A stretch of DNA of 64,000 bases from an uncultured Flavobacteriaceae bacterium (GTDB lineage Bacteria; Bacteroidota; Bacteroidia; Flavobacteriales; Flavobacteriaceae). A model generated the notes under the pieces. The model was not told where the DNA came from, did not search any database, and was given only the letters and a program-made list of their open reading frames with translations. Location of the stretch: positions 1-64,000 of the forward strand of contig CAJJDI010000002.1 of NCBI GenBank assembly GCA_905182835.1, given 5' to 3'. A program made the position numbers and the translations under genes. Numbering within the stretch: position 1 is the stretch's first letter; the number at the start of each line of letters is the position of its first letter. Of the stretch, positions 25,219 to 33,262 are shown one piece after another.

Positions 25219-27957
25219 CTATTTAAGTTTTTTCTTTATTTCTACTTGCTGGAATCCTTCAATAATATCCCCTTCTTTTAAGTCGTTATAGTTTTTAATT
25301 TGCATTCCACAATCATAACCTTTAGAAACTTCTTTAACATCATCTTTGAATCTTTTTAATGACAATAATTCTCCAGAATAAATTACCACTCCTTCACGGA
25401 TTAGTCTAATTCCACAGCTTCTAAATATCTTACCAGTCGTTATCATACAACCAGCAATTGTTCCAATTTTAGATATTTTAAAAGTTTCTCTAACTTCAGA
25501 AGTACCTGTTATCTCTTCTTTAAAGTCTGGAGACAACATACCTTCCATTGCATCTTTCAACTCATTTATAGCATCATAGATAATAGAATACATTCTAATA
25601 TCAATTTCTTCTTTATCAGCTATTTGTCTGGCATTACCTGTTGGCCTAACGTTAAATCCAATTATAATTGCATCTGAAGCTGACGCTAACAATACATCAC
25701 TTTCAGTTATAGCACCAACACCTTTATGTATAATGTTTACTTGAATCTCTTCTGTTGATAATTTTTGGAAGGAATCTGTTAATGCTTCAACCGAACCATC
25801 TACATCTCCTTTAAGAATAATGTTTAATTCTTTAAATTCACCTAGTGCAATTCTTCTACCTATTTCATCTAAAGTAATATGCCTTTGTGTTCTAACAGAT
25901 TGCTCTCTTTGCAGTTGAGTTCTTTTAACCGCAATTTGTTTAGCTTCTCTCTCGTCTGAGAAAACAATAAATTTGTCACCAGCTTGTGGTGCACCATCTA
26001 AACCTAGAATTGAAATTGGAGATGATGGACCGACGCTTTCAACACTATTTCCTCTTTCGTCATGCATTGCTTTAACTTTACCGCTGTTTTTTCCAGCAAG
26101 AACATAGTCACCAACGTTTAATGTGCCAGTTTGAACAAGAATGGTTGATACATAACCCCTTCCTTTATCCAAAAAGGCTTCCACAACCGTACCTGAAGAA
26201 GATCTGTCAGGGTTAGCCTTAAGCTCTAAAAGCTCAGCTTCTAACAATACTTTTTCTAGTAGATCCTCAACTCCGTCACCTTTTAGTGCTGATATATCAT
26301 GAGACTGTATTTTTCCTCCCCAGTCTTCAACCAGTAAATTCATTTGAGAAAGACCTTCTTTTATTTTATCTGGATTCGCTGTAGGTCTATCAATTTTGTT
26401 AATTGCAAAAACTATAGGTACTCCTGCTGCTTGAGCATGAGAAATGGCTTCTTTTGTTTGCGGCTGAATGGTGTCATCTGCAGCTATAACAATAATTGCT
26501 AAATCGGTTACCTGTGCACCTCTTGCTCTCATTGCTGTAAATGCTTCGTGACCTGGAGTATCTAGAAAAGTGATCTTCTGACCACCAGATAATTCCACAC
26601 TGTAAGCTCCAATATGTTGAGTAATTCCTCCTGATTCTCCAGCAATTACATTCTCTTTTCTGATATAATCTAACAAAGAAGTTTTCCCATGATCAACATG
26701 CCCCATTACTGTAACAATTGGAGCTCTTGGTTTTAAATCTTCCTCACTATCAATAATTTCTTCTATAGCTTCTTCAATATCTGCAGTAACAAACTCTACG
26801 CTATATCCGAACTCTTCTGCAACTATACTAAGTGTTTCAGCATCTAAACGTTGATTCATAGTAACCATCATACCAAGAGTCATACATGCAGAAATAATTT
26901 CTGTCACAGAAATATCCATCATCGTAGCAACTTCACTTGCTGTAACAAATTCTGTTACTTTAAGCAACTTACTATCGGCCTCAACAGTTGCAATATCATC
27001 CTCAGTTTTTTGACGGTGCTGATCTCTTTTATCTTTTCTATATTTAGCAGCTTTACCTTTAGAGCCTTTGCCTTGTAGTTTTTCAAGGGTTTCTCTAACT
27101 TGTTTTTGGACTTCCTCAGCACTAGGCTCTTCTCTTGTTGTTGTGGAAGGCTTCGCTTTAAAGTTAGATTTTTGAGCTGGTTTTTGACCTGGTCTTAACG
27201 CCGGTCTTTGCCCAGGTTTTGCGGTATCATTAGGCTTACTAATTCTCCTTCTTTTTTTCTTAGAATGAATAGAAACTGGAGATTCTTTCTTTTTCTCAGT
27301 TTTAAATTTTGACAAATCAATAGTTTCGCCAGTTGATTTAAGACCTGATAACTTTTTGTATTGAGTGGTAACTTTATCAGAATCAACAGACTTTGTTTCA
27401 TCTTCAACTTTATTTTCGTCTTTAGCAACGACTGGAGTTTCAGCTTTTTGCTCCTCTTTAACAACTATAGGCTTTTCAACTTTCTTCTCTTCTTTAACAA
27501 CCACTTTAGTTTCTACAGGTGGTTCTACAGCTGGTATTTCTGATTTAATTTCAGGTTCAGCTGCTTTTTGATGCTCCATAGGAGTAGGCTTAGATTTTGG
27601 TTTAGATAATTCTAAATCAATTTTCCCTACTTTTTTTATTTCTTTAATTTTAGACGCAGCAATAATTACCTTACTTTCTTCTTCTTTTTTCTTTAACAAC
27701 AATTCAATCTCAGCCTCCCTTTTAACTCTGATAGCCTCTTTTTCTTTCGATTTAGCCTCTCCTAGCTCTTTGGACGCAACCTTTTTATTGGCGTCTGTCT
27801 GAAATTCGTTCGATAATAGATCATAAATCTCTAAAGAAATTTTAGTTGTTGGACGTTTCTCAATTTCAATACTTTTAGATTCAAGAAAATCTATAGCACG
27901 ATCTATTGAAATATTCAACTCTCTAAGTACTTTATTTAATCTAATATTTTCAGCCAT
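25219..27957 (-). CDS. infB: Translation initiation factor IF-2
   Basis: 912 aa, [19 protein letters not shown], long charged N-terminal region. Confidence 0.98.
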
Positions 27958-27978: not shown

Positions 27979-29211
27979 TCAATCTTCAAATTCTTGTTTA
28001 AGAATTCTAACTACTTCTGCAATAGTTTCTTCTTCTAAATCAGTTCTTTTTACTAAATCAGCAACTTCTTGCTCTAAAACACTTTTCGCAGTATCTAGTC
28101 CAGCTTTAGCAAACTCATCTATCACCCACCCTTCAATCTCGTCACTAAACTCTTTTAATTCCACATCTTCTTCAACACCTTCTCTGAAAACGTCAATCTC
28201 ATAGCCAGTGATTTGACCTGCTAGTCTAATATTATGACCACCACGCCCGATTGCTTTACTAACTTCTTCAGGCTTTAAAATAACCTCAGCTCTTTTATTT
28301 TCTTCATCAATTTTAATTGAAGTAATTCTAGCAGGGCTTAAAGATCGTGTAATAAAAAGTTGGAGGTTATTGGTGTAATTAATAACATCAATGTTTTCAT
28401 TACCAAGCTCTCTAACAATTCCATGAATTCTAGAGCCTTTCATTCCTACACAAGCTCCCACAGGGTCAATTCTATCATCATATGAATCTACAGCCACTTT
28501 CGCTTTCTCTCCAGGAATTCTTACTACTTTTTTAACATTTATAAGGCCATCAAACACTTCCGGGATCTCTTGTTCAAATAATTTTTCTAAAAATGCAGGT
28601 GATGTTCTAGACATGATTATTGAAGGCTTTGATCCTTTTAATTCTACACTTTCTATAACGCCTCTAATATTATCTCCTTTTCTAAAAAAATCAGAAGGAA
28701 TTTGTTTTTCCTTAGGCATGATAATTTCGTTACCATCATCATCTAATAAAATTATTGCTCTATGTTTAATGTGGTGCACTTCAGCAGTGTATATTTCACC
28801 TACTAAATCTTTGAACTGTTTATAGATATTAGTATTATCGTGTTCTTGAATTTTAGCTACTAAATTCTGTCTTAATGCCAAAATAGCTCTTCTTCCAAGG
28901 TCAATAAGTTTAACTTCTTCAGAAACATCTTCTCCAACTTCAAAATCTGGTTCAATTAATCTAGCTTCTGTCAATGATATTTCTCCATTTTCATCTTCAA
29001 TCTCTCCATCAGCAACTACGACTCTATTCCTCCAGATTTCTAAATCCCCTTTATCAGGATTAATTATAATATCAAAATTATCATCATCTCCAAATTTTCT
29101 TTTTAAAGCACTTCTAAAAACCTCTTCTAAGATGGTCATTAAAGTTACTCTATCAATTAATTTATCGTCTTTAAATTCGGAAAAAGACTCTATTAACGCT
29201 ATATTCTCCAT
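27979..29211 (-). CDS. nusA: Transcription termination/antitermination factor NusA
   Basis: 410 aa with S1/KH-type sequence, VGACVGMKGSRIHGIVRELGNENIDVI. Confidence 0.97.
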   Translation of the reverse strand: MENIALIESFSEFKDDKLIDRVTLMTILEEVFRSALKRKFGDDDNFDIIINPDKGDLEIWRNRVVVADGEIEDENGEISLTEARLIEPDFEVGEDVSEEVKLIDLGRRAILALRQNLVAKIQEHDNTNIYKQFKDLVGEIYTAEVHHIKHRAIILLDDDGNEIIMPKEKQIPSDFFRKGDNIRGVIESVELKGSKPSIIMSRTSPAFLEKLFEQEIPEVFDGLINVKKVVRIPGEKAKVAVDSYDDRIDPVGACVGMKGSRIHGIVRELGNENIDVINYTNNLQLFITRSLSPARITSIKIDEENKRAEVILKPEEVSKAIGRGGHNIRLAGQITGYEIDVFREGVEEDVELKEFSDEIEGWVIDEFAKAGLDTAKSVLEQEVADLVKRTDLEEETIAEVVRILKQEFED

Positions 29212-29220
29212 AATATAATA

Positions 29221-29682
29221 TTAAAATTTAATTTTAACTTTTGCTTCTTTTATATCTTTATATAAAATATTTATCTCTTTTAAAACTGTGATTTTACCCT
29301 TACCTATTTTTTTAGGTTCACGTTGCTTCCACTTTAATTTTATTTCATCATCAGTGGCATCTACTAATTCTGCTTCATAGTCGTTATCGTTTGTTTTAAC
29401 CTGTAAAACTCTTCCTATGTTCTTTACAAATTGTCTGTATATAGTTAAAGAAGCCGATGCGCCTGCTGAACTTACTTCAAGAGAAAAATCATGTTCCTCT
29501 CTATCAATATTGTGTTCTATAGCGCGACTTACATACATACAGTCTTCTACTAAAACACCTTTATCACCGTCAATAACAATTGTAATTGTATTGTCAGGTA
29601 GTATATCAAAATCTATTAGAAACAAATCTTTTCTTTCTAGTAAACTTTCATCGAGTAATTGTTCAACAATTTTTTTAAACAT
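29221..29682 (-). CDS. rimP: Ribosome maturation factor RimP (start taken at ATG 29682; the supplied ORF extends to 29724)
   Basis: MFKKIVEQLLDESLLERKDLFLIDFDILPDNTITIVIDGDKGV...; the extra 14 residues of the ORF are encoded by a terminator hairpin. Confidence 0.9.
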   Translation of the reverse strand: MFKKIVEQLLDESLLERKDLFLIDFDILPDNTITIVIDGDKGVLVEDCMYVSRAIEHNIDREEHDFSLEVSSAGASASLTIYRQFVKNIGRVLQVKTNDNDYEAELVDATDDEIKLKWKQREPKKIGKGKITVLKEINILYKDIKEAKVKIKF

Positions 29683-29690
29683 AATTCTAT

Positions 29691-29716
29691 AAAAAGAGGG
29701 GACTTTTAGTCCCCTC
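29691..29716 (-). terminator. Intrinsic terminator/attenuator hairpin upstream of rimP
   Basis: Minus strand GAGGGGACT-AAA-AGTCCCCTC followed by TTTTT; perfect 9-bp stem, 3-nt loop, ending about 9 nt before the ATG. Confidence 0.8.
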
Positions 29717-29742
29717 ATGATCAATTGTGATAATTAAAGATG

Positions 29743-29750
29743 CAAATATA
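29743..29750 (-). promoter_or_regulatory. Candidate -7 element (TATATTTG) upstream of the rimP leader
   Basis: CAAATATA on + strand; matches TAnnTTTG; no clear -33. Confidence 0.4.
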
Positions 29751-29811
29751 CAAATTTAATTTTTATTCTTAAAAATTTCCTTCAAGAAGAAAAGAATTAA
29801 AACATAATCAG

Positions 29812-29884
29812 TTGGCCCACTAGGTTTCGAACCTAGACTCTTCTGCACCAAAAACAGACGTGTTACCAGTTACACCATAGGCCA
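29812..29884 (-). tRNA. tRNA-Gln (anticodon TTG)
   Basis: Reverse complement TGGCCTATGGTGTAACTGGTAACACGTCTGTTTTTGGTGCAGAAGAGTCTAGGTTCGAACCTAGTGGGCCA; cloverleaf, anticodon loop TTTTGGT. Confidence 0.93.
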
Positions 29885-30028
29885 ATTGCTGAGCGTGCAA
29901 ATTTATAATAATCTTTTATTTTAACAAGATTTTTTAAATAATAAATTTGATTAAATAATTGTTAAAAGAAAATTATTAAATATATCATACAATTTTTATC
30001 CTTAAATTTGGCTCTCAAAATAATTTTT

Positions 30029-33000
30029 ATGAGTGATTACAACTTTAAAAAATGGAATAATATTTTAGGTTGGCTATGCTTTACTATTGCAGTAATTGTA
30101 TATGGTCTTACAGCAGAACCTACTGTGAGCTTTTGGGACTCAGGAGAATATATACTGACCGCTTCCAAGTTACAAGTTGGACACCCTCCAGGAGCTCCTC
30201 TTTTTCAAATGCTTGGAGCCTTTTTCTCAATTTTCGCAGTTGATCCTTCAAAAATTGGATATATAATGAACCTAATGAGTGGTGTTGCTAGCGCTTTTAC
30301 AATACTATTCATGTTTTGGTCAATCAGTATATTACTTTCAAAAATATCATTTAATTTTAATTCTAAAACAGATAATAATCTTACAATTCTTTTAAGTTCT
30401 AGTATCGCAAGTTTAACATTTATGTTTACCGATACTTTTTGGTTTAATGCTGTAGAAACAGAAGTTTATGCAATGGCAACTTTAATTATGGCAGTGCTGT
30501 TTTATTTGGGGCTTAAATGGGAACAAGAGATGCATTTACCAAGAGGTAACAGGTGGCTTATATTAATTAGTTTTGTTGTAGGTTTATCTTTTGGGGTTCA
30601 TTTTATGGGCTTATTAACAATCCCTGCAATCGGTTTAATTTATTTTTTTAAAAACTACAAACCAATTACATTAAAGAAGTTTATTATAGCTAACGTCGCA
30701 GTAGTTGCAATTTTAATGTTTGTATTTAAGCTTTTAGCCCCCAATATTTTACTGTATTTCAGTGTGATGGAGGTGTTTTTTGTGAACTCTATAGGGCTTC
30801 CTTTTAATTCAGGAACCATAATTGCTGGGGTTTTGCTAATCTCTTTTTTCTATTATGGAATTACCTACACAATTAAAAATAATTTAAAAACACTAAACAC
30901 AATTTCTCTTTGTGTTTTATTTATATTAATTGGGTTTTCTTCATGGATTATGCTTCCAATTAGGGCAAATGCCGATGTAGTTGTAAATGAAAATGACCCT
31001 TCCAATGCAAGAGAGCTATTAGCATATTACAACCTGGAACAATATCCCAAAACACATTTGTTTTATGGACCTTTATTTACCGATCAATATTCTGGTCTAG
31101 ATGAAGAAAATCCCTATAAAGACGATAAGCCTAAATATGAAAAAGATTTAGTTAACAACAAATATATTGTTGTAAATAATTACAAAAATGCCACGCAAAA
31201 TTTTAACAGTGAACAGGCTTCTATATTACCTAGAATGTGGAGTTCAGAACACGCTTCCAATTACTTAAGGTACACTGGGTTTTTAAATTTCAACATAAAA
31301 AACAAATACAAAAGTCAGCCAGAAGCTAAAGAATTATTAGAGCTTATTAATGATTTTAAAAAAAGAACTTATCAAGGGGATATAGATTATGAAGATCATC
31401 ACAAGTTTTTAAAAACCTATGGGCAATATCTCGATATTGAAAAACCTTCTCTAATTAGTAATATTACATACCTAATTCAATATCAATTAGGGTATATGTA
31501 TTGGAGGTATTTTATGTGGAATTTTAGCGGAAGACAAGATGACATTCAAGGTAGAATGGATATGCACGGAAACTGGATTAGTGGGATTAATTTTGTTGAT
31601 GAAATTCACCTTGGACTAAGTCAAGATAATTTACCTAGTGATGTTTCCAATAACAAATCAAGGAACACATACTACATGGTGCCATTCATTATAGGTTTAA
31701 TGGGACTCTATTTTTTATACAATAGAGATAAAGAATTGTTTTGGACGATGTTAGTGTTTTTTGTTTTTACTGGTATAGCAATTCAGGTATATACTAATGT
31801 GAGACCATTTGAACCAAGAGAAAGAGATTATTCCGTTGTTGGTTCATTTTATGTTTTTTCTATGTGGATAGGGTTTGGAGTATTTAGCATCGCCAGCTAC
31901 CTAAACAACCTTTTTAATTCAAAGTTCGTTAAAATCTTAGCAGTTCCAATTTTTATTTTAATACTTCCAATTAACCTTGCTAGTAGTAATTGGGATGATC
32001 ACGATAGGTCTGGTAGATATACAGCATATTCAATGGCAGTTAAATATCTAGAATCGTGTGAGCCAAATTCCATATTATTTACCATTGGAGATAATGACAC
32101 ATTCCCTTTGTGGTATGCGCAAGAAATTGAAGGAATTAGAACAGATGTGAGAGTGTTAAACACAAGTCTTTTCAATACGGATTGGTACATAGATCAGATG
32201 AAAAGAAAAGCATACGATAGTGAGCCGATTCCATCATCTTTAAATCATGATAAATACAAATATGGCACTAGGGATTATATTATAAAAGAGGTTACTACTT
32301 TAGATACGATCGACATAAAAACTTTCATAAAATTTGTCACTCAAGACGATCAAAAATATAAATACAAGAGTTTGCTTAAAAAGCAGGGCTACGAAACTAG
32401 TTATTTAAGAGATCAAGACTTAAACGCAAATTATCTACCTACTGAAAGTGTTAGTATTCCAGTAGATAAAGAATCCGTACTTAAAAACAACATAGTAGAT
32501 AGTAGTTTAACTGACCAGGTTGTAGATAAAATAGTTATTAAAATTAAAGGACAGGCACTATATAAAAATAGATTGTTGATGCTAGATATTATTGCTGAAA
32601 ATAATTGGGAAAGGCCCATTTACTTTACTGGCGGCTCTTTTGGAGATGATGATTATTTATGGATGAAAGATTATTTACAACTTGAGGGATTATGCTATAA
32701 ATTAATTCCTGTAAAAACTCCAATTGACCAGTCAAATCCTTATGAAATGGGGAGAGTAAATACAGAAAAAATGTACTCTATGGTTAAAAATTGGGACTGG
32801 GGAACAAAAGGGGACATGAATGTTTATTTTGATGTTGAGTCCAGAAAAAATAGTATTACATACAGAAGTAATATTTCCAGGTTAATTAATCAGCTTATTC
32901 TGGAAAATAAAAAAGATAAGGCAGAAGAGATAACCAATATTGTAATGGAAAACATACCTGTTAGTATATTTGGATATTATACACTTTTAGAGCCTTATAT

Positions 33001-33262
33001 CGAGTCTTATTATATGGTTGGTAATGCTGAAAAGGCTAGAGATTTATTTTTAGAAATCTCAAATAAATACAAGGAAAATCTCTTTTATTACAGCAATCTG
33101 ACTGAGAGTAATAAAAATAAATATGCTCAAGATATTTATACCGATATTGAAAGGTACAGATCATTAGTAGGTGTAATTATATCGCATGAAAACGGGGTGT
33201 TTTTAGAAGATGAAATGGAAGAATTTAATTCTTATTTAGAATTATTTATTGGAAAAGAGTAA
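30029..33262 (+). CDS. DUF2723 / protein O-mannosyltransferase-like membrane protein (start taken at ATG 30029)
   Basis: MSDYNFKKWNNILGWLCFTIAVIVYGLTAEPTVSFWDSGEYI...VGHPPGAPLFQMLGAFFS; upstream TTG of the supplied ORF lies in a -7-like TAAATTTG. Confidence 0.88.
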   Translation: MSDYNFKKWNNILGWLCFTIAVIVYGLTAEPTVSFWDSGEYILTASKLQVGHPPGAPLFQMLGAFFSIFAVDPSKIGYIMNLMSGVASAFTILFMFWSISILLSKISFNFNSKTDNNLTILLSSSIASLTFMFTDTFWFNAVETEVYAMATLIMAVLFYLGLKWEQEMHLPRGNRWLILISFVVGLSFGVHFMGLLTIPAIGLIYFFKNYKPITLKKFIIANVAVVAILMFVFKLLAPNILLYFSVMEVFFVNSIGLPFNSGTIIAGVLLISFFYYGITYTIKNNLKTLNTISLCVLFILIGFSSWIMLPIRANADVVVNENDPSNARELLAYYNLEQYPKTHLFYGPLFTDQYSGLDEENPYKDDKPKYEKDLVNNKYIVVNNYKNATQNFNSEQASILPRMWSSEHASNYLRYTGFLNFNIKNKYKSQPEAKELLELINDFKKRTYQGDIDYEDHHKFLKTYGQYLDIEKPSLISNITYLIQYQLGYMYWRYFMWNFSGRQDDIQGRMDMHGNWISGINFVDEIHLGLSQDNLPSDVSNNKSRNTYYMVPFIIGLMGLYFLYNRDKELFWTMLVFFVFTGIAIQVYTNVRPFEPRERDYSVVGSFYVFSMWIGFGVFSIASYLNNLFNSKFVKILAVPIFILILPINLASSNWDDHDRSGRYTAYSMAVKYLESCEPNSILFTIGDNDTFPLWYAQEIEGIRTDVRVLNTSLFNTDWYIDQMKRKAYDSEPIPSSLNHDKYKYGTRDYIIKEVTTLDTIDIKTFIKFVTQDDQKYKYKSLLKKQGYETSYLRDQDLNANYLPTESVSIPVDKESVLKNNIVDSSLTDQVVDKIVIKIKGQALYKNRLLMLDIIAENNWERPIYFTGGSFGDDDYLWMKDYLQLEGLCYKLIPVKTPIDQSNPYEMGRVNTEKMYSMVKNWDWGTKGDMNVYFDVESRKNSITYRSNISRLINQLILENKKDKAEEITNIVMENIPVSIFGYYTLLEPYIESYYMVGNAEKARDLFLEISNKYKENLFYYSNLTESNKNKYAQDIYTDIERYRSLVGVIISHENGVFLEDEMEEFNSYLELFIGKE

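What the first reader, a model, noticed from the sequence alone, without database searches (positions are those of the whole stretch)
29680..29760. Intrinsic terminator immediately upstream of rimP-nusA-infB: candidate NusA-responsive attenuator
Seen: on the minus strand a 9-bp perfect GC-rich stem (GAGGGGACT-AAA-AGTCCCCTC) plus TTTTT ends about 9 nt before the likely rimP ATG (29682). Both the tRNA-Gln gene and a -7-like TATATTTG (29743-29750) lie upstream of it, so any transcript from either must cross this terminator to reach rimP, nusA and infB. Known: in E. coli the metY-rimP-nusA-infB operon also has a tRNA upstream and NusA autoregulates by modulating termination. Inference: this is a similar regulatory logic, or a tRNA-Gln terminator with partial read-through, in a Bacteroidota lineage.
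Basis: partly seen in the sequence, partly recalled or inferred. Interest (0 to 1): 0.6.

Follow-up and report, generated by a model that had tools for sequence, protein, structure and literature searches.

The report
NusA-operon leader terminator in Bacteroidota
Just before the rimP-nusA-infB genes this marine flavobacterium has a built-in transcription stop signal, found in front of the same operon in nearly every Bacteroidia family sampled, and it probably lets the termination factor NusA limit its own production, as is known in Bacillus and E. coli.

Summary
A perfect GC-rich hairpin plus U5 (29691-29716, minus strand) lies 13 nt before rimP and occurs once in the genome. It is not a terminator of tRNA-Gln. 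A TAnnTTTG promoter lies between the tRNA and the hairpin, the tRNA distance varies from about 100 nt to absent, and the hairpin stays. Hairpin plus T-tract was found upstream of rimP in 154 of 160 Bacteroidia genomes (60 of 64 families) and in 79 of 79 Flavobacteriaceae with usable upstream sequence. Six of eight stem pairs show compensatory changes with 100% pairing, so selection acts on the RNA hairpin; loop length varies, which argues against a DNA operator. There is no antiterminator and no conserved leader peptide. In lineages that lost RimP, promoter, hairpin and T-tract sit directly before nusA, so RimP is not needed. The Flavobacteriaceae U-tract is U5-A-U-A, unlike the longer tracts of other terminators nearby. 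This fits NusA-stimulated premature termination of the nusA operon, shown in B. subtilis and proposed in E. coli and S. agalactiae. NusA dependence was not tested here. Rfam's rimP leader (RF01770) does not match. Verdict: a Bacteroidota counterpart of a known regulatory kind, partly reported before in Flavobacteriaceae.

The parts
29811..29884 (-). tRNA-Gln (TTG) gene, upstream neighbour, not part of the attenuator
   Evidence: ARAGORN, Rfam tRNA 61 bits; distance to the hairpin not conserved in relatives
29743..29750 (-). promoter -7 element TATATTTG of the operon (Bacteroidota type TAnnTTTG); transcription start inferred about 5-10 nt downstream
   Evidence: sequence; TAnnTTTG lies upstream of the hairpin in 149/154 Bacteroidia genomes, median gap 25 nt, 6.9% in shuffles; gap 23-29 nt in all 79 Flavobacteriaceae
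29696..29716 (-). terminator hairpin, 9 bp (8 bp in most relatives), stem GAGGGGACT/AGTCCCCTC
   Evidence: conserved in 154/160 Bacteroidia genomes; compensatory changes at 6 of 8 pairs
29688..29695 (-). U-tract TTTTTATA: five U, then interrupted
   Evidence: U5-A-U-A in 78/79 Flavobacteriaceae leaders against modal runs of 6-7 U in other terminators of the same loci
29221..29682 (-). rimP (ribosome assembly cofactor), first gene of the operon
   Evidence: NF002531, 198 bits, cut-off 123
27979..29211 (-). nusA, proposed effector of the attenuator
   Evidence: TIGR01953, 364 bits; NusA_N and KH domains
25219..27957 (-). infB (IF-2)
   Evidence: TIGR00487, 827 bits

Best explanation
The hairpin and U-tract form an intrinsic terminator in the 5' leader of the rimP-nusA-infB mRNA. 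Transcription starts at the TATATTTG promoter; after about 40-50 nt RNA polymerase has made the hairpin, and a fraction of complexes stops at the U-tract. The rest read through into rimP, nusA and infB. NusA, product of the second gene, raises the stop fraction when abundant and lowers it when scarce, so the operon holds its own NusA level without antiterminator, ligand or leader peptide. Shown here: anatomy, conservation, selection on the RNA pairs, place between promoter and first gene, independence from tRNA and RimP. Inferred: that termination occurs in vivo and that NusA sets its efficiency.
For: Hairpin plus T-tract in 150/160 rimP upstream regions against 10/480 shuffles, 154/160 and 60/64 families on rescan, 79/79 usable Flavobacteriaceae loci, 5/5 of the genus. 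Six of 8 pairs with two-sided changes, 100% of cells paired, 0/500 shuffles. T-rich side only downstream, in the rimP direction. Promoter upstream of the hairpin in 149/154, between hairpin and gene in only 1. No antiterminator: 2/228 spacers carry 5 or more nt complementary to the 5' arm. RimP-less genomes keep promoter, hairpin and T-tract directly before nusA in 17 of 19 nusA loci; RimP was lost on several separate branches. U-tract interrupted at position 6, as at NusA-dependent terminators of B. subtilis (PMC12288461). Same architecture in E. coli. Other species: NusA autoregulation by leader termination in B. subtilis (PMC12288461); termination 31 nt after the start site of the same operon in S. 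agalactiae (PMC4448216); t1 and t2 upstream of rimP in E. coli (PMC6511841). A structured 5' element upstream of rimP was reported from F. psychrophilum transcriptomics (PMC9723704).
Against: No transcript or 3'-end data for this organism. The hairpin itself is strong (-15 kcal/mol), not weak as typical NusA-dependent terminators are. The U5-A-U-A signature could instead serve the A/T-rich region before the start codon. The stem sequence GAGGGGAC/GTCCCCTC is more conserved within Bacteroidia than a plain terminator needs. A few families (f44, f52, f70) have the promoter but no hairpin.
Confidence: 0.72

Rival explanations
1. It is the terminator of tRNA-Gln with partial read-through into rimP.
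For: tRNA-Gln is on the same strand 95 nt upstream here and similarly close in the genus; same-strand tRNA-Gln within 1.5 kb in 54 of 80 Flavobacteriaceae loci.
Against: The distance varies from 102 to 1337 nt, or no tRNA is found within 1.5 kb; the hairpin stays 12-15 nt before rimP in almost all. A promoter lies between tRNA and hairpin. Most of the loci checked outside the closest relatives have no nearby tRNA yet keep the hairpin.
Confidence: 0.04
2. The hairpin is a constitutive leader terminator or 5' stabiliser that sets a fixed expression level, with no feedback.
For: The same sequence features would be seen. Stems in other Bacteroidota classes are unrelated in sequence, so only hairpin and U-tract are required.
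Against: Persistence at the nusA operon across phyla, including RimP-less genomes, and experimental NusA feedback on the same leader in B. subtilis (PMC12288461) and evidence for it in E. coli (PMC4448216 and its references).
Confidence: 0.15
3. The hairpin is a sequence-specific binding site for RimP, a ribosomal protein or another RNA-binding regulator.
For: Stem sequence unusually conserved within the class: GGGGRC in 109 of 150.
Against: RimP is absent (PF02576 below cut-off in 18/18) where the hairpin persists. Stems with GAGAGG, GAGCGG or GAGGCACGC are accepted by whole groups of relatives. Other classes use different stems.
Confidence: 0.08
4. It is a DNA operator palindrome for a dimeric transcription factor.
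For: Perfect inverted repeat next to a promoter.
Against: Loop length varies from 3 to 8 nt, which changes half-site spacing and phase. The T-tract is one-sided. Compensatory changes keep pairing while altering the half-sites.
Confidence: 0.01

Closest known systems
NusA-autoregulated leader terminator of the B. subtilis nusA operon (Mondal et al. 2016, as summarised in PMC12288461)
   Same: Intrinsic terminator in the 5' leader of the nusA operon; termination feedback; interrupted U-tracts favour NusA dependence
   Different: NusA dependence shown there, not here; much shorter leader here (about 55 nt; 180 nt in B. subtilis per PMC2965389)
rimP-leader attenuator (Naville and Gautheret 2010, PMC2965389; Rfam RF01770)
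   Same: G-rich 5' arm, C-rich 3' arm, T-stretch, 4-130 nt before rimP
   Different: Stem is GAGGGGAC...GTCCCCTC, not GGGc...gCCC; no match above the Rfam cut-off in 21 relatives; the paper's main text does not mention Bacteroidetes
Structured 5' element upstream of rimP in Flavobacterium psychrophilum (PMC9723704)
   Same: Same position, same family of bacteria, stated to be conserved in other Flavobacteriaceae genera and to have no Rfam hit
   Different: The passage on it names neither terminator, NusA nor conservation outside the family; its supplement was not available to compare sequences
E. coli metY-rimP-nusA-infB leader (terminators t1 and t2)
   Same: Terminator GGGCTTTAGGCCC-T7 immediately before the rimP ATG; NusA feedback reported
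   Different: There the tRNA metY is part of the transcription unit, with promoters upstream of it as well as after it; here the conserved promoter lies after the tRNA
S. agalactiae rimP-nusA-infB 5' UTR (PMC4448216)
   Same: Promoter-proximal terminator, short terminated RNA and long mRNA from one start site; NusA feedback proposed
   Different: RNA-seq evidence there; sequence evidence only here

Membership tests
rimP-leader (Rfam RF01770) | covariance model score at or above the gathering cut-off of 47 bits | tested here: not met
   No match in the window; no match over the cut-off in 21 relatives, while one of 14 known control genomes scores over it
rimP-leader (Naville and Gautheret description) | located 4-130 nt before rimP of the rimP-nusA-infB operon, followed by a T-stretch | tested here: met
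   13 nt between stem and ATG, TTTTT tail
rimP-leader (Naville and Gautheret description) | stem motif GGGc(...)gCCC | tested here: not met
   Stem is GGGGAC...GTCCCC; G-rich/C-rich polarity is shared, the exact motif is not
NusA-autoregulated attenuator (B. subtilis type) | intrinsic terminator between promoter and first gene of the nusA operon | tested here: met
   (sequence evidence)
NusA-autoregulated attenuator (B. subtilis type) | no competing antiterminator structure | tested here: met
   2 of 228 spacers have 5 or more nt complementary to the 5' arm
NusA-autoregulated attenuator (B. subtilis type) | suboptimal terminator (weak hairpin and/or interrupted U-tract) | tested here: inconclusive
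   U-tract interrupted at position 6 in 79/79, but the hairpin is strong, median -15.6 kcal/mol
NusA-autoregulated attenuator (B. subtilis type) | termination in the leader rises with NusA | not testable with these tools
   needs NusA depletion or in vitro transcription
tRNA-Gln terminator | close, conserved link to the tRNA 3' end | tested here: not met
   distance 102-1337 nt or tRNA absent; promoter in between
leader-peptide attenuator | conserved short reading frame over the hairpin | tested here: not met
   ATG before the stem in 63 of 233, frame relative to rimP not conserved

The most novel reading that the evidence does not exclude
The class-wide conserved stem GAGGGGAC/GTCCCCTC is read by Bacteroidota NusA, or another elongation-complex factor, in a partly sequence-specific way, making it a distinct NusA-responsive terminator class. 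NusA feedback through a leader terminator would then be an ancestral bacterial circuit that kept its architecture while its stem was rewritten in each lineage and that survived repeated loss of rimP.
Probability: 0.2. Interest if true: 0.6.

Novelty: new member of a known kind. Interest (0 to 1): 0.4.

Why it matters
It extends NusA-operon attenuation from Firmicutes and Proteobacteria to a whole class of Bacteroidota, where little is known about termination control. The natural loss of rimP in several lineages, with the leader kept in front of nusA, separates the two candidate effectors named in the 2010 literature (RimP and NusA) without an experiment. The short leader and interrupted U-tract make NusA dependence directly testable in Flavobacterium or Bacteroides.

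Tried and rejected
tRNA-Gln terminator: rejected by variable distance and the intervening promoter. DNA operator: rejected by loop-length variation and compensatory changes. Leader peptide from the ATGAGGGG start: frame not conserved. Riboswitch or antiterminator: only about 20 nt before the hairpin, no complementarity; no Rfam family reaches its cut-off there. RimP as effector: RimP absent where the hairpin persists. Mondal 2016 full text is not held, so a review was used. A first alignment (A1) contained hand-typed rows with errors and was replaced by A2 built from locus references. The sigma-70 type promoter scan is not informative for this phylum. A first scan read one locus (L160) at a wrong coordinate because its flank was truncated; corrected.

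Full report
Observation. The minus strand reads TATATTTG (29750-29743), about 26 nt of A/T-rich sequence, GAGGGGACT-AAA-AGTCCCCTC (29716-29696), TTTTTATAGAATT, ATG of rimP at 29682. The hairpin folds at about -15 to -16 kcal/mol, is unique in the window and in the 1.56-Mb genome, and precedes rimP, nusA and infB. tRNA-Gln ends 95 nt upstream of it.

Conservation. The pattern GAGGGGNC...GNCCCCTCTTT occurs in 103 of 395 Bacteroidia genomes; the reversed control gave none in the rows shown. Of 76 hits checked in genomes whose RimP position was listed, 72 lie 9-110 nt before rimP (positions). RimP upstream regions from 160 genomes, taken without regard to the hairpin, gave a hairpin followed by a T-tract in 150, against 10 of 480 mononucleotide shuffles. 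With a wider search 154 of 160 genomes and 60 of 64 families have one. The sample favours genomes with good RimP scores plus one or two genomes from most other families, so it is broad but not random. Among 80 named Flavobacteriaceae loci, 79 have it and in the last the contig ends before it. All five genomes of the genus have it. f2 has a version with a longer loop, visible in the sequence. f44, f52 and f70 show a promoter and no hairpin; f40 has an imperfect one.

RNA, not DNA. On 51 distinct gap-free hairpins every cell is paired, 6 of 8 pairs have changes on both sides, and none of 500 shuffles reaches any of the measures. Examples are GAGAGGAC/GTCCTCTC in Winogradskyella, GAGCGGAC/GTCCGCTC in Lacinutrix and Psychroserpens, and GAGGCACGC/GCGTGCCTC in G194 and G247. 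The apical segment varies from 3 to 8 nt. The T-rich tract is on the rimP side: T 0.95-0.71 over six positions, against A 0.68-0.35 in the mirror positions. Other Bacteroidota classes also have a terminator before rimP with unrelated stems, for example GAAAGTGGGGGATCCCCACTTTTTT or TTCGCCC...GGGCGATTTTT. E. coli has GGGCTTTAGGCCCTTTTTTTATG. What is kept across these groups is hairpin plus U-tract before the nusA operon, not one sequence.

It belongs to the operon leader. TAnnTTTG lies within 90 nt upstream of the hairpin in 149 of 154 genomes (shuffles 6.9%), median gap 25 nt, and between hairpin and gene in one. In Flavobacteriaceae the gap is 23-29 nt in all 79. The tRNA-Gln distance ranges from 102 to 1337 nt or no tRNA is found. 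The predicted terminated RNA is about 40-50 nt long; in S. agalactiae the same operon terminates 31 nt after its start site (PMC4448216).

RimP-loss test. Forty-two of 395 genomes had no RimP match. In 18 of these a second RimP model, PF02576, also stayed below its cut-off while positive controls rang. Nineteen nusA loci of such lineages were examined: 17 have hairpin plus T-tract, with a TAnnTTTG element 9-56 nt before it, at 43-182 nt before the nusA match, including GGGGAC...GTCCCC stems in f62. The exceptions are a 0.5-Mb genome (f26) and one f46 genome; other f46 hairpins are weaker and the f72 case is further away. One of the nineteen (G178) was not among the 18 checked with the second RimP model. 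In a NusA tree the RimP-less families fall on separate branches: f62 is sister to RimP-bearing f56 (support 99), f25 groups with f6 and f65 (95), f72 with f33, f57 and f78 (100) (quick tree, read from its branching). So the leader outlives rimP, and RimP is not the effector in those lineages.

Mechanism. There is no room for a riboswitch or antiterminator (2 of 228 spacers have complementarity) and no conserved leader peptide. The Flavobacteriaceae U-tract is U5-A-U-A in 78 of 79; at position 6 the T frequency is 0.00 against 0.88 in 243 other terminator-like sites of the same loci, whose modal run is 6-7. These leaders share ancestry, so this is one signature and not 79 independent ones. NusA matters most at terminators with weak hairpins or interrupted U-tracts, and B. 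subtilis NusA is autoregulated by NusA-stimulated termination in its own leader (PMC12288461). The simplest reading is the same circuit here. That termination occurs in this organism and depends on NusA is inference.

Known or new. The kind is known: the rimP-leader attenuator (PMC2965389), NusA feedback in B. subtilis and E. coli, and the proposal for S. agalactiae. A structured rimP 5' element was reported in F. psychrophilum and other Flavobacteriaceae, without Rfam hit or mechanism in that passage. The window element does not match RF01770 and lacks the exact GGGc...gCCC motif, so it is not filed as a member of that Rfam family; it works like it. New here, as far as the held literature shows, are the class-wide extent, the covariation, the promoter spacing, the interrupted U-tract and the RimP-loss test.

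Noticed in passing
G015, G024, G141, G172, G189, G277, G299 and others (loci L272-L290): RimP appears to be lost several times within Bacteroidia (families f17, f25, f46, f62, f72, f26) although nusA and mostly infB are kept in place.
   Followed up: partly
L349-L358 (families f44, f52, f40): Lineages that lack the leader hairpin, or have an imperfect one, have long NusA branches in the tree (1.84, 1.08, 0.84); this may reflect general fast evolution or loss of the NusA circuit.
   Followed up: no
29724-29683, minus strand: An ATG directly before the stem is in frame with rimP here (MRGLKVPSFYRIM...), so annotation could wrongly extend RimP through the hairpin; the frame is not conserved.
   Followed up: yes
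L192-L271: tRNA-Gln is a same-strand neighbour of rimP in 54 of 80 Flavobacteriaceae loci, usually about 1 kb away with other sequence in between; in this genus it is only about 100 nt away.
   Followed up: partly
30008-33262: Divergent gene for a 1084-aa TMEM260-like protein O-mannosyltransferase (PF11028) next to tRNA-Gln.
   Followed up: no
L302-L331: Other Bacteroidota classes have rimP leader terminators with their own class-typical stems, some with reversed polarity (C-rich 5' arm, TTCGCCC...GGGCGA).
   Followed up: partly
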